In this document: positions 17,252 to 25,253 of the stretch, piece by piece
Layout: each line of letters opens with the position of its first letter
Position numbering within the stretch: position 1 is the first letter of the stretch
Assembly (NCBI GenBank): GCA_026625625.1
Contig: CP113055.1
Coordinates: 932,501-996,500, forward strand
DNA: 64,000 bases
Reading direction: 5' to 3'
From: Blastomonas sp. SL216
Lineage (GTDB): Bacteria > Pseudomonadota > Alphaproteobacteria > Sphingomonadales > Sphingomonadaceae
Made by a program: the position numbers and the translations under genes
The notes under the pieces: model-generated
Told to the model about the DNA's origin: nothing
Database searches by the model: none
The model's input: only the letters and a program-made list of their open reading frames with translations

Positions 17252-18055
17252 ATGGCCAATCCGACCGATGAGACCACCCAGTCCACGCACTCCCCCGATG
17301 CAGCCGTGCCGCTCGACCGGCTGGTGGCAATCATGGCGCGGTTGCGCGACAAGGATCATGGCTGTCCATGGGATATCGAGCAGGATTTCTCCACGATCGC
17401 GCCTTACACGATCGAGGAAGCCTATGAGGTCGCCGATGCCATCGCGCGCGATGACATGGCAGCGCTCAAGGACGAACTCGGCGATCTTCTGCTCCAGGTC
17501 GTGTTCCACAGCCGCATGGCCGAGGAAGCTGGCCATTTCACTGTCGCCGACGTCATCGCATCGATCAGCGACAAGATGGTGCGGCGGCATCCGCACATCT
17601 TTGCAGACCAATCGGTCGAGAGCTGGGATTGGGAAGCGATCAAGGCGGCAGAACGCAGCGATGGCGGCGCTGAGAGCGCGATGGACGGCGTCGCGGTGGC
17701 GTTGCCCGCGCTGATGCGCGCGCAGAAGCTGCAGAAGCGCGCTGCACGCACCGGGTTCGATTGGCCCGATGTCATGGGTGCGGTCGAAAAGATCGGCGAG
17801 GAAATCGAGGAACTGCTCAATGCCGAAACCGAGGCGGATCGGGCCGAGGAAGCCGGCGATCTTTTGTTCGCAGCGGTCAACACGGTCCGGCATATGGGCG
17901 TGACTGCCGAGGACGCGCTGCGCGCCGCCAACGCCAAGTTCGAACGGCGTTTCCGCATGATGGAAGCGCTTGCCGGTCAGGGCTTTGCCGACTTGTCGCT
18001 CGAGGACAAGGAAGCGCTGTGGCAGCGCGCCAAGCGTGGCGAGGGCGCGCTATAG
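17252..18055 (+). CDS. mazG: Nucleoside triphosphate pyrophosphohydrolase MazG
   Basis: The product is 267 aa, the full two-domain length. The first domain has RDKDHGCPWDIEQDF and YTIEEAYEVADAI followed by ELGDLLLQVVFHSRMAEE (the ExxE...ExxD metal site). The second domain repeats the pattern in EEIEELLN and EEAGDLLFAAVN. It hydrolyses NTPs to NMPs and can lower ppGpp-linked stress. It is convergent with hflX; the two coding regions overlap by 6 bp (18050-18055). Confidence 0.96.
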   Translation: MANPTDETTQSTHSPDAAVPLDRLVAIMARLRDKDHGCPWDIEQDFSTIAPYTIEEAYEVADAIARDDMAALKDELGDLLLQVVFHSRMAEEAGHFTVADVIASISDKMVRRHPHIFADQSVESWDWEAIKAAERSDGGAESAMDGVAVALPALMRAQKLQKRAARTGFDWPDVMGAVEKIGEEIEELLNAETEADRAEEAGDLLFAAVNTVRHMGVTAEDALRAANAKFERRFRMMEALAGQGFADLSLEDKEALWQRAKRGEGAL

Positions 18056-19357
18056 CGCCTGGAACCGGCCCCAGTCCTTGTCCGAGAGGCGCACCGAAAG
18101 TGCCACATCGTCCCCCTGCTCGCGGCTGTGCAGCACCTCCCCATGGGCATGCAGCCAGGCGATCCGCTGGCCATCATGGCGCGCGAGCGTGACATCGTGG
18201 ACGCGGTGACCGATGACGAGCGCTGCTGAGGCTGCGCGCAGGAGTTCGCTCACGCCTTCGCCAGTCAGGGCGGATATCGGGCACACCTTGCGATCGCGCG
18301 GCGCGGTGTCGATCAATCGTTCGCGGGTCTCCGCGTCCAGCGCGTCCCATTTGTTCCAGGCTTCGATCAGCGGGATGGCCATCCCCTGCCCGGCCAGCAC
18401 CGGATCCAGTTCCAACCCCAGATCGGCCAGGATCGTTTCGACCGATTGCGCCTGCATGTCTGCATCGGGATGCGACATATCCCGCACGTGAAGGATGAGA
18501 TCGGCGGAAAGAACCTCTTCCAGCGTGGCGCGGAAGGCGGCGACCAGCTCGGTCGGCAGGTCCGAGACGAACCCCACGGTATCGGAGAGGATCACCTTCT
18601 CGACCCCATTGAGCCGGATCGCGCGCATGGTCGGGTCGAGTGTTGCAAACAGCAGGTCCTCGGCCATGACGCCTGCGTGCGTCAGCCGGTTGAACAGGGT
18701 CGATTTGCCCGCATTGGTATAGCCGACCAGCGCGATCACCGGCCAGGGCGCTTTTTGCCGCCGTTCGCGGTGCAGGCCGCGCGTGCGCTTGACCTGTTCG
18801 AGTTCGCGGCGCAGCTTGGCCATGCGATCGCGGATCATGCGGCGGTCAGCCTCGATCTGAGTCTCGCCAGGGCCACCCAAAAAGCCGAATCCGCCACGCT
18901 GGCGCTCGAGATGGGTCCAGCTGCGCACCAGCCGCCCCGCCTGATAGTCTAGATGCGCCAACTCGACCTGCAATCGGCCCTCGGCGGTTGCTGCGCGCTC
19001 GCCGAAGATTTCCAGGATCAGGCCGGTGCGGTCGATGACCTTGACCTTGAGACGCTCCTCGAGGTTGCGTTGCTGGATCGCGGACAGGCTGCCATCGACG
19101 ATCAGCAGATCGGCCTTTTCGTCTTCCAGGCTATGCGCAATGATCTCGACCTGCCCTCCCCCGAACAGCGTCGCAGGCCGCGCGGTGCGGATGCGGAAGG
19201 CATGCGTCGCGCGCACTTGAATGCCGATGGCGAGCGCCAGACCGCGCGCTTCTTCAAGGCGCGCGTCGGCGTCCACCGATCCACGGCGTCCAAGATCCGG
19301 ATAGGCGATCACGGCGCGCGCGCCGCGAGCGAATTCAAGAGTCTGCGGGTCGTTCAA
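18050..19357 (-). CDS. hflX: Ribosome-associated GTPase HflX
   Basis: The product is 435 aa. The N-terminal HflX domain includes ATLFGGGQVE and GGFGFLGGPGETQIEADRR, followed by a coiled-coil linker and a G domain with GYTNAGKSTLFN (G1), DTVGFVSDLP (G3) and NKWD (G4). It rescues or splits stalled ribosomes in related bacteria. It lies 39 bp downstream of hfq on the same strand, the conserved hfq-hflX pair seen in many proteobacteria. Confidence 0.97.
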   Translation of the reverse strand: MNDPQTLEFARGARAVIAYPDLGRRGSVDADARLEEARGLALAIGIQVRATHAFRIRTARPATLFGGGQVEIIAHSLEDEKADLLIVDGSLSAIQQRNLEERLKVKVIDRTGLILEIFGERAATAEGRLQVELAHLDYQAGRLVRSWTHLERQRGGFGFLGGPGETQIEADRRMIRDRMAKLRRELEQVKRTRGLHRERRQKAPWPVIALVGYTNAGKSTLFNRLTHAGVMAEDLLFATLDPTMRAIRLNGVEKVILSDTVGFVSDLPTELVAAFRATLEEVLSADLILHVRDMSHPDADMQAQSVETILADLGLELDPVLAGQGMAIPLIEAWNKWDALDAETRERLIDTAPRDRKVCPISALTGEGVSELLRAASAALVIGHRVHDVTLARHDGQRIAWLHAHGEVLHSREQGDDVALSVRLSDKDWGRFQAL

Positions 19358-19396
19358 ACGTCAATTCAATCCTTGTCCGCCCCCGCAACCATGGCG

Positions 19397-19894
19397 TCAG
19401 TCATCATCGCCTTCGGCATCGCCCCAGTCACCGGTCAGGTCGACCGGTGCATTGGGCTGCACGGTCGAAACCGCGTGCTTATAAGCCAGCTGCGCCATGC
19501 CTTCGCGTTCCAGCAGCATGCAGAACAGGTCATAAGCGGCCACCTTGCCCTGCAGCATCACGCCGTTGATCAGGAACATGGTCACCGGCACGCCGGTTTC
19601 CTGAACCGTGCGCAGGAAGACTTCCTGCAGATTGCGGTTCTTTGCGCTCTTGGCCCCCATCAGGCCGGCGAACATGCCGAGATCGATCGGCTGCGCGGGC
19701 ATCACGGTGGATATGGCGTGCTTGTACACCAGCTGCGACTGTCCGTCGCGCCGCAGCATCACGGAGAAATTGTCAAACCAGGTGACGATCCCCTGAAGCT
19801 TGACGCCCTTGACCAGAAACATGGTCACGGGAATTTTCGATTTTCTCAGGGAGTTGAGGAAAACATCCTGAATGTTCTGGGCCTTTTCGGTCAT
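19397..19894 (-). CDS. hfq: Tandem-domain Hfq RNA chaperone (two Sm-like domains in one chain)
   Basis: The product is 165 aa, about twice a normal Hfq. Domain 1 (residues 7-72) and domain 2 (88-153) each show the Hfq pattern: [10 protein letters not shown] and [10 protein letters not shown], then VPVTMFL-type strands, LQG, and the Sm2 motif YKHAIST/YKHAVST. They are joined by a 15-residue linker and offset by 81 residues. Domain 1 keeps rim basics (R17, K18, K20) and K32; domain 2 has Q98, E99, G101 and M113 at those positions and L123 for the proximal Gln. A tail GDAEGDDD is acidic. Three chains could form the usual six-domain ring. The hflX gene follows directly. I recall a double Hfq in Novosphingobium, so this may be a clade trait. 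Confidence 0.96.
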
Positions 19895-19992
19895 TTTTTG
19901 ACCCCCGGTCTTGGTGGCGACGTTGCGCCACGGTTCATGAAAAGCCGGTGCGACACATCCCGCCCCGGCTGCGCTTGGAGGACGCGCCTTTA

Positions 19993-20021
19993 TACATAGT
20001 GCGAATGCTGCACCGCGCCAA
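19993..20021 (-). promoter_or_regulatory. Candidate sigma-70 promoter for hfq
   Basis: On the reverse strand TTGGCG (20021-20016) and TATGTA (19998-19993) are separated by 17 bp, giving a start about 90 nt upstream of the hfq ATG at 19894. It lies in the 166-bp gap after the ntrX stop. The -10 is imperfect. Confidence 0.45.
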
Positions 20022-20060
20022 TGGCCAGTTGTGGCTTTCTTGCGGTTTATCGCCTGGCAA

Positions 20061-21425
20061 TCAGCGGTCGTGCAGTCCCAGCAGCTTGAGCTTGCGGTGC
20101 AGCGCCGAGCGTTCCATGCCGATGAACTCTGCCGTCTTCGAGATATTACCTGAAAAGCGGCGGATCTGGATCTTCAGATATTCGCGCTCGAAGCTCTCCC
20201 GCGCCTCGCGCAGCGGCACACCCATCAGGCTGGAAATGCCCGCCGCACGCCCGCCATCACCCTGCACCAGCTCGGGCGGCAGCATGTCGATATCGATCTG
20301 GCTGAGCCTTCCGCGCGGAGCGAGAATGATCGTCCGCTCGATGACATTGCGCAGCTGGCGGACATTGCCCGGCCAGTTGTAGCTCTGCAGCGCCGCCATC
20401 GCCTCGCTGCTCGTTTCAGGCGGGGTGATGCCGTGTTCGCTGGCAAAGCGCGCGACATAATGCTCGACCAGCGCTGGGATATCATCGCGCCTGTCGGTCA
20501 GTGCGGGGATTTCCACCGGGACAACGTTGAGCCGGTAGAACAGATCCTCGCGAAACCGTCCCTCGGCAATCTCGTTCTCCAGGTTGCGCGATGTCGCGGA
20601 GACGAAGCGGACATCGACCTTGATCGGCCGCGTCGAGCCAACCCGCGAAAAGCTCTGGTCGGTCAGCACGCGCAGGATCTTGGCCTGGGTGGATTCGGGC
20701 ATGTCGGCCACTTCGTCGAGGAAAAGCGTGCCGCCATGCGCGCGCTCGAGCAGTCCGGGGGTCGCCATGCGCCCCTGATCCTCCTCGCCGAACAGTTCCT
20801 GCTCGAACCTGTCCGGTGTCATCCGCGCCGAATTGACCGTGATGAACGGGCCTGATGCGCGCCCGCTCCAGCTGTGCAACAGCCGCGCCGCCACTTCCTT
20901 GCCGACGCCTGCGGGACCGGTAATCAGCAGGCGGCTGCCGCTGTTGGCGACGCGCTTGAGCGTGGCTCGCACGGCATTGATCGCGCTCGAATTGCCGGTC
21001 AGCTCATCCGAAATGCCCAGCTTTTCGCGCAGCTGGGCATTCTCGCGCCGCAGCCGGGCGGTTTCGGTGCCGCGTGCGACCATGTGGATGAGCCGCTCTG
21101 CCTCGAACGGCTTTTCGATGAAATCCATCGCCCCGCGCGAGATGGCGGAAACGGCGGTGTCGATATTGCCGTGGCCGGAGAAAATGATCACCGGCAGGTC
21201 GGCATCGCGCGCCTTGATCTCGTCGAGCAGCTCCAGCCCGTCGAGCCGGCTGCCCTTGAGCCAGACATCGAGCAGCACCAGCGAAGGGCGGCGCTCGTCG
21301 ATCGCGGCCAGGGCTTCGTCGCTCCCGCCAGCCGTCCGACAGTGATAGCCCTCGTCCTCCAGCACCCCGGATACCAGCTCGCGGATATCGCGCTCGTCAT
21401 CAACGATCAGAATTTCCAAGGGCAT
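20061..21425 (-). CDS. ntrX: NtrX response regulator (NtrC-family, lacking GAFTGA)
   Basis: The product is 454 aa. Receiver domain ([13 protein letters not shown], phospho-acceptor in LLDVWL, residues 1-120), AAA+ domain with [12 protein letters not shown], and a C-terminal Fis HTH ([19 protein letters not shown]). Where sigma-54 activators have GAFTGA after ELFGHEK, this has [15 protein letters not shown], so the sigma-54 contact loop is missing, a known NtrX feature. It probably acts as a repressor or sigma-70-type regulator. It starts 3 bp after ntrY ends. Confidence 0.95.
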
Positions 21426-21428
21426 GGC

Positions 21429-23753
21429 TTAATTGCTTTCCTCATCCTGAGCGGTTGGGCTCATCTCGCTTTTCGGGCGTGCCGCACGTGCGGTGATCGC
21501 CGCCAGCTTTTCGGATCCATGGCGCATCGCCTCTGATCCATTATCCTGCAGCGAACCTGCGTGGAGCAGCACCGTGTCCATCCTGATGGTCACGCGCGTG
21601 CCGCCCTGGTCATTGGGTTCGAAGGCCAGCTCGCCATAATGCTCCTCGACGATCTTCTTGACGATGGCGAGGCCCAGGCCGGTGCCTTTCTCGCGCGTCG
21701 TCATATAGGGCTCGACGATCCGGTCGCGGTCTGCGGGCAGGCCGATGCCGTTATCGTCGAGTGTCAGAATGACAAACGGTTCCTGACGCGAGACGGTTGC
21801 CGTAACCACGCCCTGATAGCCTTCCTGGCCCTGCTGCCGTGCTTCGATCGCTTCAACCGCGTTCTTGAGGATGTTGGTCACCGCCTGGCCGATCTGGCGG
21901 CGATCGCAGAACATGTCGCTGCCTTCGTGCGCGCCCTCGGCAGCAAAGCGGATGGCCGGGTGCGCGACCTCTTGCAGGAAGATGGCCTGACGCACGAGGT
22001 CGAAGAAATTCTCCTCGCGGAACACCGGCTTGGGCATCCGCGCGAACGACGAGAATTCATCAACCATGTTTCGCAGATCGCCGACCTGACGGACGATGGT
22101 GTCGGTCAGCTGGCCAAATGTCGCATCGTCTGCGCTGACCTTGCTGGCATAGCGGCGCTTGAGCCGCTCGGCGGCGAGCTGGATCGGGGTCAGCGGGTTC
22201 TTGATCTCATGCGCGATCCGCCGCGCCACGTCGGACCAGGCTGCCTGGCGCTGATCGACGAGCTGCTGGGTAATATCCTCGAAGGTGATCACGATGCCAT
22301 GCGGCTCGCGCACCACGCGCACAGCCAGCGTCAGCAGATCGTTGCCGCGCGAATACTGGATGACGGCCTTCTCGGTCCCCTCGCCCACCAGCCGCGCAAA
22401 GGGCGGCGCGATGCTGGACAAGGTGCAGCCCAGGCAGCGCTCGACATTGACCTGCAACAGTCGCTGCGCGGTGCTGTTCATCAGCCGCAAAATGCCCATC
22501 GGATCGACCGATATGACCCCTGCGCTGACCGATTCCAGCACGGCCTCGGTGAACGCGCGCCGATCGTCGAGCTGGCTGTTGGCGCGGATCAGGGCAGAGG
22601 TCTGCTCGGCCAGCCTGCTCGCCATGCGGTTGAACGCCCGGCCGAGGACGCCGACCTCGTCGGTACGATTGGCGGTGTCGACACGGATCGCGAAATTGCC
22701 GGTGCTGATATCGCGCGCCGCGCCTGCCATATCGGTCAGCGGGCGCACCATCCGGTCGGCGAATTTCAGCGCCGCCCAGAGCGCGACCGCCACCAGCAGC
22801 AGCGATACGACGAACAGCGCGATGTTGAAGCGCACCTGCAGGTTCTGCGAGCGGGAAAAGAGCGCCTTGTAATCGGTGAGCACGGTCTGCGCGCGCTCCC
22901 ACTGGCTGAGCGCCAGCTGGTTGGATGCGCGGGCAACATAGAGATAGATTTTCGCCTGGCGGTCGATCGGGGTCACCACCTCGATCCGGTCGGCTTCGGC
23001 AGAGACCACCGCTGTCTCGCCCTTGTCGAGCTGCTGGATGATGGCGGGGCTGACCCTATCCGAGGATGTCCGGTTGTCGGGATCGACGATCGCGGCGGTG
23101 CGCAGAACGCCGTCATTGCCCACCTCGACGATCGCCGATTCGTTCATCTTGCGCCCGGCGACCTGGAAGACATAGGCCTCGGCAAATTCGGGGCTGTCGA
23201 TGCGCGCCTGTTGCAGATATTGGCGCAGGTCGCTCGCCATTGCGACCGTCTCTGCCGAAACGTCGCGCCGTCCCTCCTCGTAATAGCCGCGCGCCAGGTC
23301 ATTGGCATTTTCCAGCATCGCGCGCGCGCGATCGGAGAACCAGAACTCGACGCCATATTGGAACAGCAGCGAAGTGATCACCACGACGAGCAGCATCGGG
23401 ATCGACGATATCAGCGAGAACAGCGCCACGAACCGGACGTGGAGCTGCCCGGTCCCCTGCTCGCCGCTCGCATTGGCCCGGCTGATTGCAACGCGGCGCC
23501 CGATCAGTGCCAGCAACGCCATGGCGGGGACGAGATTGGCTACCAGCAGCGTTGCCGTCACCGGGGCAGGCACCATTGCCGCACGCCCCTGATAGCTGCC
23601 GACCAGCCACCACGACATGGCGATCATGCCGATCAGCAGCGCCACGCAGCCGATCTCCAGCGCCGGAAACAGGCTGCCACGGCGCATCATCACGGTGAAG
23701 CGGCGAGCGAGTCGACTCTTTCTGGCGGGGGGCAGTGCGACAGACGCGGGCAT
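21429..23753 (-). CDS. ntrY: NtrY sensor histidine kinase
   Basis: The product is 774 aa. Several N-terminal membrane segments (about residues 30-140) flank a periplasmic sensor region, followed by another membrane segment, a HAMP linker (FADRMVRPLTDMAGAA), a PAS domain, the H box IAHEIKNPLTPIQL and an HATPase with DNGIGLP and GTGLGLAIVKKI. It pairs with NtrX immediately downstream and links nitrogen or redox state to gene expression. It is preceded by an 84-bp gap containing a 7-bp dyad. Confidence 0.96.
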   Translation of the reverse strand: MPASVALPPARKSRLARRFTVMMRRGSLFPALEIGCVALLIGMIAMSWWLVGSYQGRAAMVPAPVTATLLVANLVPAMALLALIGRRVAISRANASGEQGTGQLHVRFVALFSLISSIPMLLVVVITSLLFQYGVEFWFSDRARAMLENANDLARGYYEEGRRDVSAETVAMASDLRQYLQQARIDSPEFAEAYVFQVAGRKMNESAIVEVGNDGVLRTAAIVDPDNRTSSDRVSPAIIQQLDKGETAVVSAEADRIEVVTPIDRQAKIYLYVARASNQLALSQWERAQTVLTDYKALFSRSQNLQVRFNIALFVVSLLLVAVALWAALKFADRMVRPLTDMAGAARDISTGNFAIRVDTANRTDEVGVLGRAFNRMASRLAEQTSALIRANSQLDDRRAFTEAVLESVSAGVISVDPMGILRLMNSTAQRLLQVNVERCLGCTLSSIAPPFARLVGEGTEKAVIQYSRGNDLLTLAVRVVREPHGIVITFEDITQQLVDQRQAAWSDVARRIAHEIKNPLTPIQLAAERLKRRYASKVSADDATFGQLTDTIVRQVGDLRNMVDEFSSFARMPKPVFREENFFDLVRQAIFLQEVAHPAIRFAAEGAHEGSDMFCDRRQIGQAVTNILKNAVEAIEARQQGQEGYQGVVTATVSRQEPFVILTLDDNGIGLPADRDRIVEPYMTTREKGTGLGLAIVKKIVEEHYGELAFEPNDQGGTRVTIRMDTVLLHAGSLQDNGSEAMRHGSEKLAAITARAARPKSEMSPTAQDEESN

Positions 23754-23814
23754 AGTGTTCAGTTTACAACAGTTGCGTTGCCAGAATACAAGAGCTTTCC
23801 TGTTATGACGCGAA

Positions 23815-23834
23815 GGTTACCGCAATTGGTAACC
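23815..23834. promoter_or_regulatory. Dyad between ntrC and ntrY
   Basis: GGTTACC-GCAATT-GGTAACC is a perfect 7-bp inverted repeat starting 4 bp beyond the ntrC stop and about 60 bp ahead of ntrY. It could be an operator for a separate ntrYX promoter or an mRNA hairpin. There is no U tract in either direction. Confidence 0.4.
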
Positions 23835-23837
23835 GTT

Positions 23838-25253
23838 TCAGCGCAGCTCGCCGCTGCCCAGCCCGTGCTCGACCAGCTTCTTGCGCAAGGTGTTGCGGTT
23901 GATGCCCAGCATCGCCGCGGCCTTGACCTGGTTGCCATCGCATCTGCGCATGATCGCCTGAAGCAGCGGAATCTCGAACGCCGCCAGTGCCTTGTCATAA
24001 ACCAGGCCATGTTCGGGCCGCTCGGTCAGCAGGAAGCGGCTGACGGCCTGTTCGAAGTCGCTTTCCTCGCGCCGGGTCTCTCCGGTGCCCAGCGCCGGTT
24101 CGTCGAAAATGCCGCCCAGGGCATCGGCAGTGATCAGGTCATCGCGGCTCATGATCACGGCGCGGAACACAAGGTTGCGCAGTTCGCGCACGTTGCCGCG
24201 CCAGTTGCGCCGCTGCATCGCCGCGATCGCGCTGTCGTCGAAGCTCCGGCGTGGCAGCCCTTCGTGCACCGCCAGCGCCAGGAAATGATCGACGAGCGCG
24301 GGGATATCGCTCAACCGGTCGCGCAGCGGCGGCAGGTCGATCGGCACCACGTTGATCCGATAATACAGATCCTCGCGGAACAGCCCGGCTTCGATCAGCG
24401 GCCCGAACGGCTTGTTGGTGGCCGCGACGAAGCGCACGTCCAGCTCGATCTCGCGATGCCCACCGACCCGGGTGATGCGCCCGGTCTGCAACGTCCGCAA
24501 CAGGCGGGTTTGCGCCTGCATCGGCATGTCGCCGATCTCGTCGAGAAACAGCGTGCCGCCATGCGCCTGTTCGAACTTGCCGATGGTCTGCGCGACGGCG
24601 CCCGTGAACGCGCCCTTTTCATGCCCGAACAGCTCGGATTCGATGAGCTCTGCCGGGATCGCCGCCATGTTGACCGCCACGAACGGCCCCTGCTTGCGAT
24701 GGCCCAGCTGGTGGATCGCCTCTGCCACCAGCTCCTTGCCGGTGCCCGATTCGCCCAGGATCAATACTGACAGGTCGTTGCGCAGCACGCGCGTGATCAT
24801 GCGGTAGACATTCTGCATCGGCGCGCTGCGGCCGACCAGCGGCAGCCCGCTATCGGCAGGGTCGGCATCGGCATTGCCCGATACATCGCCGCTGCGCGCA
24901 ATCGCCTGCAGCACGGCGCGGATCAGTTCGTCGAGATCGAACGGCTTGGGGAAATACTCATAGGCCCCCGCTTCGCTCGCGCGCACCGCCGTATCGAGCG
25001 TGTTCTGGGCCGACAGCACGATGACTGGCGTGTCGGGATGACGATCGAGCACGGTGCCCAGCGTCGCGATGCCATCGCCGTCTTCCAGCATCACATCGGT
25101 GAGGATTGCGGCATAGCGCTTGTTCGCGATCAGCGCGTTGCGCCTGGCGATCGAGGTGCAATGGTCGACGCTGCAGCCCTCGGCCTCGAGCGCGGCCATG
25201 ATCACCTGACCGATCGAACGGTCATCTTCGACCAGAAGAACCGATTTGGCCAT
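23838..25253 (-). CDS. ntrC: NtrC nitrogen-regulation response regulator, sigma-54 activator
   Basis: The product is 471 aa. Receiver (VLLVEDDRSIGQVI, LTDVMLEDGDG), AAA+ domain with GESGTGKELVAEA and the intact sigma-54 contact motif in HEKGAFTGAVAQ, and a Fis-type HTH ending VKAAAMLGINRNTLRKKL. It activates sigma-54 promoters under nitrogen limitation when phosphorylated by NtrB. It starts 6 bp after ntrB. Confidence 0.96.
   Translation of the reverse strand: MAKSVLLVEDDRSIGQVIMAALEAEGCSVDHCTSIARRNALIANKRYAAILTDVMLEDGDGIATLGTVLDRHPDTPVIVLSAQNTLDTAVRASEAGAYEYFPKPFDLDELIRAVLQAIARSGDVSGNADADPADSGLPLVGRSAPMQNVYRMITRVLRNDLSVLILGESGTGKELVAEAIHQLGHRKQGPFVAVNMAAIPAELIESELFGHEKGAFTGAVAQTIGKFEQAHGGTLFLDEIGDMPMQAQTRLLRTLQTGRITRVGGHREIELDVRFVAATNKPFGPLIEAGLFREDLYYRINVVPIDLPPLRDRLSDIPALVDHFLALAVHEGLPRRSFDDSAIAAMQRRNWRGNVRELRNLVFRAVIMSRDDLITADALGGIFDEPALGTGETRREESDFEQAVSRFLLTERPEHGLVYDKALAAFEIPLLQAIMRRCDGNQVKAAAMLGINRNTLRKKLVEHGLGSGELR

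What the first reader, a model, noticed from the sequence alone, without database searches (positions are those of the whole stretch)
19397..19894. Hfq made of two tandem, functionally asymmetric Sm domains
The gene encodes two complete Hfq domains joined by a 15-residue linker, both with YKHAIST-type Sm2 motifs. They are not equivalent: domain 1 keeps the basic rim residues (R17, K18, K20), K32 on the distal face and N42F43, whereas domain 2 carries Q98, E99, G101, M113 and L123 at those positions. A trimer would give a six-domain ring with alternating RNA-binding and RNA-poor rims. I recall a double Hfq in Novosphingobium; the divergence of the second half and its meaning for sRNA annealing look unexplored.
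Basis: partly seen in the sequence, partly recalled or inferred. Interest (0 to 1): 0.75.

Follow-up and report, generated by a model that had tools for sequence, protein, structure and literature searches.

The report
Fused double Hfq with unequal halves
This gene encodes the RNA-matchmaker protein Hfq with two ring units fused into one chain and specialised in opposite ways; the fused form was already known, but here it traces to a single event in one bacterial family and its two halves keep a fixed chemical difference that can now be tested.

Summary
Window 19894..19397 (minus strand) is an intact 165-aa hfq with two Hfq domains, the only hfq found in this Blastomonas-type genome. It is a regular member of a curated family (NCBIfam NF010691). 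The architecture is not new: Yang et al. 2010 (PMC2877685) reported it in Zymomonas and six other Sphingomonadales and asked whether three chains form the ring.

What the calls add:
(1) One duplication-fusion inside one family (f1): single-to-double changes once on a 95-row tree of neighbouring genes (support 100/99), with no loss among the rows.
(2) A fixed, reciprocal swap on the distal face: domain 1 gained Lys at E. coli position 28 (147 of 147 unique proteins); domain 2 lost Lys31, to Met in 140 of 147. Total charge at these two sites is conserved but relocated.
(3) The basic rim is full in domain 1 and eroded, differently by lineage, in domain 2.
(4) Pore and adenine-pocket residues stay in both halves.

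So domain 1 is not simply the ancestral half, and the exact rim cited is seen only in the Blastomonas group. The likeliest design is a trimer forming a pseudo-hexamer with alternating sites. That is inferred: AlphaFold2 supports defined packing only weakly; no oligomer was measured.

The parts
19397..19894 (-). hfq, fused double-domain RNA chaperone Hfq, 165 aa
   Evidence: the only other match in the own genome is E 0.1
19697..19876 (-). Sm/Hfq domain 1, residues 7-66 approx. (R17 K18 K20 rim; K29 and K32 distal face; Q9, K58, H59 pore)
   Evidence: Pfam PF17209 best stretch 8-70; position table
19634..19696 (-). linker, residues 67-87, with a short helix predicted at 72-78
   Evidence: domain bounds; AlphaFold2 secondary structure
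19454..19633 (-). Sm/Hfq domain 2, residues 88-147 approx. (Q98 E99 G101 rim; N110 and M113 distal face; L123; Q90, K139, H140 pore)
   Evidence: two PF17209 stretches counted; bounds from own profile; position table; invariant columns
19397..19453 (-). acidic C-terminal tail (residues 148-165) and stop codon
   Evidence: tail charge median -6 in non-g12 doubles, -4 in singles
18050..19357 (-). hflX, neighbour used as tree marker
   Evidence: TIGR03156 GTP_HflX
20061..21425 (-). ntrX, neighbour used as tree marker
   Evidence: NF051870 NtrX

Best explanation
This is the normal hfq gene of a Blastomonas-group strain, of the fused type. A single in-frame tandem duplication inside this bacterial family joined two hfq units into one gene. 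The two units then specialised by shared, fixed changes: domain 1 gained a lysine at position 28, part of the second-purine (R) pocket of the distal, A-rich-RNA-binding face; domain 2 lost lysine 31 and changed positions 38, 41 and 63. The basic rim of domain 2 eroded to different degrees in different lineages. The likely working form is a trimer whose six domains alternate as a pseudo-hexamer. The U-rich proximal pore stays intact. The distal face has two alternating kinds of site, and there are three strong and three weak annealing rims, with three acidic tails instead of six. It most likely does the usual sRNA-mRNA matchmaking. Shown: domains, distribution, single origin on the tree, fixed substitutions, purifying selection. 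Inferred: trimer ring, alternation, and the effect on RNA.
For: Two PF17209 domains and NF010691 over cut-off. Doubles over cut-off only in family f1: 172 of 296 genomes in the order sample (no genome of another family below E 4.8e-44), 6 of 387 in the class sample and 19 of 397 in the phylum sample. Tree of HflX+NtrX: 95 rows, 53 doubles and 42 singles, one change, 100/99 support, 1 change in 100% of 200 bootstrap trees. Positions 28/31 are K,K in domain 1 with N,M in domain 2 in 138 of 147 unique doubles. Singles: N28 and K31 in 25 of 25 unique order singles, in 24 of 24 class singles read (the best-scoring loci fetched), and in 15 of 15 further f1 singles (read by eye). Charge at 28+31: singles +1 (25 of 25), domain 1 +2 (147 of 147), domain 2 zero (145 of 147). 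Positions 8, 32, 52, 56 invariant in both halves, and 55, 57, 60, 61 nearly so. dN/dS medians 0.12 and 0.18 in non-g12. AlphaFold2 pTM 0.76 and 0.77 for two homologues. A Zymomonas hfq mutant has stress phenotypes.
Against: No oligomer was measured or modelled. No coordinates were available, so D1-D2 ring-neighbour contacts were not checked. Only 2 of 5 and 1 of 5 AlphaFold2 models were confident (mean pLDDT of the rest 36-57). Conserved pore and interface residues would also fit two separate homo-rings. In genus g12 the pattern loosens (domain 2 Met31 in 15 of 22; dN/dS 0.34 and 0.39), so alternation may not be needed there. Domain trees rest on 67 columns, and in the free search long branches joined domain 2 to the outgroup. 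Very diverged doubles outside f1 could be missed, because such doubles score like singles.
Confidence: 0.7

Rival explanations
1. Six chains form two stacked homo-rings, one of domain 1 (lysine-rich distal face) and one of domain 2 (neutral distal face), so the asymmetry is between rings rather than within one ring.
For: Both halves keep pore, pocket and interface residues; a linker of 18-23 aa in non-g12 doubles might span two rings; the opposite charge states would make two distinct faces.
Against: AlphaFold2 pTM 0.76/0.77 from single chains suggests the two domains pack on each other, which a flexible bridge between rings would not be expected to give (inference); linker length is tight in non-g12 (5-95% range 19-22).
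Confidence: 0.15
2. The asymmetry is neutral: once fused, the ring needs only three good sites of each kind, and domain 2 drifted (a constructive-neutral ratchet) without a new RNA-binding behaviour. This can be true together with the trimer ring.
For: Domain 2 evolves about 1.6 times faster (p-distance 0.155 against 0.244, non-g12); rim erosion differs by lineage; relaxed constraint in g12.
Against: K28 in 147 of 147 domain 1s, and Met31 and Gln63 each in 125 of 125 non-g12 domain 2s, are fixed rather than drifting; the change in domain 1 is a gain; median dN/dS of domain 2 is 0.18 in non-g12.
Confidence: 0.3
3. Domain 2 is a degenerate appendage that does not join the ring; domain 1 alone forms the working hexamer.
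For: Domain 2 is more diverged from single Hfq than domain 1 (mean p-distance 0.42 against 0.26, non-g12) and less basic.
Against: Q8, L32, Q52, K56 are 147 of 147 in domain 2 and T61 146 of 147; purifying selection; no loss among the 53 doubles on the tree.
Confidence: 0.05

Closest known systems
Zymomonas mobilis Hfq (ZMO0347) and six other Sphingomonadales, Yang et al. 2010, PMC2877685 (passages seen)
   Same: One protein with two Sm-like domains; the question whether three chains make the ring was already asked.
   Different: The passages seen do not describe the asymmetry, the 28/31 swap or the origin of the fusion; its additional files were not seen.
NCBIfam NF010691 / PRK14091, RNA chaperone Hfq (double-length model)
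   Same: Window protein matches over residues 1-159 above cut-off.
   Different: Nothing; it is a member. By score the model does not separate g12-type doubles from singles.
Single-domain alphaproteobacterial Hfq, e.g. Caulobacter crescentus Hfq, PDB 6gwk
   Same: Domain 1 is very close (best PDB hit by sequence; 79% identity over 66 columns).
   Different: One domain per chain. The single-domain relatives read here all have Asn28 and Lys31; 6gwk itself shows VNGVKLQG.
Heteromeric eukaryotic Sm/Lsm rings (recalled; also mentioned in PMC2877685)
   Same: A ring with non-equivalent subunits in fixed order would be analogous.
   Different: Those use seven separate proteins; this would use one fused pair and belongs to the Hfq family.

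Membership tests
Hfq (PF17209) | Sm fold with Hfq signature (Sm2 YKHA.ST, pore Q8, K56, H57) | tested here: met
   Two stretches above cut-off; residues present in both domains; model matches Hfq structures by fold
Hfq (PF17209) | Six-domain ring | not testable with these tools
   No multimer modelling or coordinates; pTM 0.76/0.77 only hints at fixed packing
Hfq (PF17209) | RNA binding and sRNA-mRNA annealing | not testable with these tools
   Only literature on relatives: Zymomonas hfq mutant phenotypes; Hfq-dependent SuhB regulation in Sphingopyxis granuli (PMC6563040, passages; domain count of that Hfq not checked)
Double-domain Hfq (NF010691 / PRK14091) | Match over both domains above 270 bits | tested here: met
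   287.9 bits, residues 1-159 of 165, model positions 16-173 of 176
Double-domain Hfq (NF010691 / PRK14091) | Window gene belongs to the one clade of doubles | tested here: met
   1 change on the 95-row neighbour-gene tree; domains 1 and 2 each one group in the domain tree, SH-aLRT 94 and 91; Met24 in 8 of 9 unique f1 singles, 120 of 147 domain 1s and 124 of 147 domain 2s, but in 0 of 16 singles of other families and 0 of 24 class singles

The most novel reading that the evidence does not exclude
A natural, obligately three-fold Hfq ring. One fused pair breaks the six-fold symmetry by moving the distal lysine from one domain to the other, giving two alternating classes of A-rich RNA site, with three strong and three weak annealing rims matched to three acidic tails. 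Hfq function would then not require six equivalent subunits, and most of a bacterial family would run its sRNA network on an asymmetric chaperone.
Probability: 0.35. Interest if true: 0.7.

Novelty: new member of a known kind. Interest (0 to 1): 0.42.

Why it matters
How many of Hfq's six identical sites are needed, and whether mRNA and sRNA sites must be equivalent, is hard to test in a homo-hexamer because every mutation appears six times. A naturally fused, asymmetric Hfq lets each half be changed alone (three copies per ring, if the trimer reading holds). The fixed 28/31 swap names the residues to change first.

Tried and rejected
Assembly error: rejected; seven named records carry the same double at 96-99% identity. 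A second, separate hfq in the genome: the only other match is E 0.1. Domain 2 taken from a distant donor: not favoured; Met24 is shared with f1 singles, and the tree holding D1, D2 and f1 singles together scored 34 log units higher than the free search (p-AU 0.84), though a 67-column tree is weak evidence. Singles as secondary losses of the fusion: not supported; one change on the tree. Single-like scores in genus g12: read and found to be doubles with very diverged domain 2 (9 of 9). G1252 with a half score: its hit starts 53 bases from a contig end, so domain 2 is cut off; set aside. G1010 with two equal matches near the two ends of one contig: perhaps overlapping ends, not checked further; one copy used. 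Structural second look by VIA-align: library not available.

Rows dropped before counts: L101, L102 (partial singles) and L062 (duplicate of L004) from the position table; identical domain pairs counted once, 147 unique doubles out of 181 rows and 25 unique singles out of 27. These doubles were fetched from top-scoring lists, chosen genera and the 80 best loci, so they are not an even sample. The dN/dS medians used only pairs with dS 0.2-1.5. AlphaFold2 alignments held 56 rows and 36 rows, chosen from the 80 loci plus the window; the second lists L172 twice by mistake. The tree used one row per genus for most doubles, 10 of 22 g12 rows, and the singles read.

Limits: g12 rim positions in domain 2 are uncertain (gaps at positions 14-15 in 9 of 22). 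Genera are numbered, not named; only loci have names. The count of 48 single-like genomes is by hand.

Papers seen as passages only: PMC2877685, PMC3474761, PMC9797736, PMC10725011, PMC8121710, PMC10628458, PMC5770649, PMC6563040; PMC9797736, PMC10725011 and PMC5770649 were not used for a conclusion. Other papers only as listings.

Full report
WHAT IS THERE. On the minus strand, window 19894..19397 is an open frame of 165 codons starting with ATG. The order on that strand is ntrC-like, ntrY-like, ntrX, hfq, hflX, with mazG on the plus strand beyond. The protein has two Hfq domains (Pfam PF17209, two stretches, E 7.8e-55) and matches the curated double-length model NF010691 over residues 1-159 at 287.9 bits (cut-off 270). 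In the 3.86-Mb genome the only other match is E 0.1. Of seven named records at 96-99% identity, five are Blastomonas and two are labelled Sphingomonas, so the window is Blastomonas or a very near relative.

IS IT KNOWN. Yes, as an architecture. Yang et al. 2010 (PMC2877685; passages seen) describe Zymomonas mobilis Hfq with two Sm-like domains, note six other species of Sphingomonadales with the same, and ask whether only three chains would make the ring. PMC3474761 (passages) lists Novosphingobium aromaticivorans among organisms with two hfq-like copies, which may be the same observation. In the listings of ten paper searches and the passages seen I met no structure of such a protein and no analysis of its asymmetry. 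Most subscription papers are outside that library, so this is not proof of absence. No chain long enough for a double Hfq appears among the 35 PDB sequences matched (longest 114 residues).

DISTRIBUTION AND ORIGIN. In a sample of 296 genomes of the order, 172 exceed the NF010691 cut-off; no genome of another family has an E-value below 4.8e-44, the range of single domains. In a class sample 6 of 387 exceed it, all f1; the best match outside f1 scores 147 bits over model positions 6-94, one domain. In a phylum sample 19 of 397 exceed it, and the 20 genomes with E <= 1e-45 are all f1. In a family sample of 397 genomes, 388 match and 319 exceed the cut-off. By my hand count 48 of those 388 have single-like scores outside g12, in 15 genera; at least one member of each of the 15 was read and has one domain. 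Genus g12 scores low but is double in 22 of 22 read. On a tree of neighbouring HflX and NtrX (95 rows: 53 double, 42 single), single-to-double needs one change; the doubles are one side of a branch with support 100/99, and 100% of 200 bootstrap trees agree (first version with 76 rows). Rows of other families mostly lack NtrX, so their part of the tree rests on HflX. Domain 2 probably comes from the same family's Hfq: Met at position 24 is in 8 of 9 unique f1 singles, 120 of 147 domain 1s and 124 of 147 domain 2s, but in 0 of 16 singles of other families and 0 of 24 class singles. Domains 1 and 2 each form one group in a domain tree (39 rows each; SH-aLRT 94 and 91), but with only 67 columns.

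THE ASYMMETRY (E. coli numbering; 147 unique doubles, of which 22 are g12; 25 unique order singles). Position 28: singles N 25/25, domain 1 K 147/147, domain 2 N 146/147. Position 31: singles K 25/25, domain 1 K 138 and R 9, domain 2 M 140/147 (125/125 outside g12). Position 41: N in domain 1 (125/125 non-g12), L in domain 2 (121/125). Position 38: W (125/125) against A (117/125). Position 63: M (123/125) against Q (125/125). Net charge at 28+31 is +1 in singles, +2 in every domain 1 and 0 in 145 of 147 domain 2s, so the sum per pair of domains is essentially unchanged. Of the 9 doubles with R31 in domain 1, 7 have lost M31 in domain 2; all 9 are g12, so this may be one history. Fifteen further f1 singles and 24 class singles read all have N28 and K31. 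Rim (16, 17, 19): +3 in 25 of 25 singles and 125 of 125 non-g12 domain 1s; mean +0.36 in non-g12 domain 2s, where R16 stays in 99 of 125, position 17 is basic in 37 and position 19 in 3. The QETG rim of the window is found in 9 of 181 fetched doubles, all in genus g1 or the seven 96-99% records; genera g6 and g20 keep R or K at both 16 and 17 in 15 of 20. Thus the distal swap looks old and fixed, and rim erosion looks later and repeated. Kept in both halves: Q8, L32, Q52, K56 (147/147 each); G29, T61, S60, Y55, H57 nearly so.

WHAT THE POSITIONS DO. From passages of PMC10628458: the distal A/R site spans two subunits, with Q33, L32 and Q52 from one and T61, water-mediated N28, L26, I30 and Y25 on the second site; R16/R17/R19 are the annealing patch; the acidic C-terminal tail competes for that patch. 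From PMC8121710: backbone groups of K31 and N28 contact RNA, so a side-chain change there need not abolish binding. In an alternating ring, three second-purine pockets would carry K28 and three N28. Each fused chain has one acidic tail (median charge -6), so a trimer would have three tails and three full rims. This last part is inference.

SELECTION AND STRUCTURE. Domain 2 changes faster (mean p-distance 0.244 against 0.155 in non-g12) but is constrained: median dN/dS 0.18 against 0.12; in g12 0.39 and 0.34. AlphaFold2 gives pTM 0.76 (pLDDT 80.1) for the window protein and 0.77 (80.8) for a Rhizorhapis homologue, both with two Hfq-type strand orders and a short linker helix. In these jobs only 2 of 5 and 1 of 5 models were good; the others had mean pLDDT 36-57.

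FUNCTION. In Zymomonas an hfq insertion mutant is less tolerant to several stressors. In Sphingopyxis granuli the sRNA SuhB represses thnR in an Hfq-dependent way (PMC6563040, passages); I did not check that this Hfq is double. An ordinary chaperone role is therefore most likely.

VERDICT. Real, intact and a regular member of a known fused type. The content added here is the single origin, the fixed reciprocal 28/31 swap with a gain in domain 1, and the split between an old distal change and a later, repeated rim erosion. The alternating-trimer mechanism remains to be measured.

Noticed in passing
genus g12, e.g. L048, L049, L050, L051, L052: A genus with small genomes (2.1-2.9 Mb) has the most diverged double Hfqs read here: both halves less constrained (median dN/dS 0.34 and 0.39), Gln for His57 in domain 1 in 4 of 22, and in some a tail of only 1-2 residues.
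   Followed up: partly
L012, L014, L030, L108, L109, L141 and others: About half of the unique doubles (74 of 147) have an N-terminal extension with a motif like TLSARPRPK before domain 1; by name it is in 22 of 22 unique Novosphingobium and 4 of 4 Croceibacterium but 0 of 2 Blastomonas and 0 of 3 Croceicoccus.
   Followed up: partly
window 18050-21425 and loci: ntrX is found within the fetched flank of hfq in 110 of 112 f1 loci but in only 1 of 16 loci of other families, while hflX is found in 128 of 128; exact order was not checked outside the window.
   Followed up: no
window 18953-19999 (+) and 21561-24770 (+): Long open frames (348 and 1069 aa) run antisense to hfq and to ntrY/ntrC; most likely by-products of base composition, not genes (not tested).
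   Followed up: no
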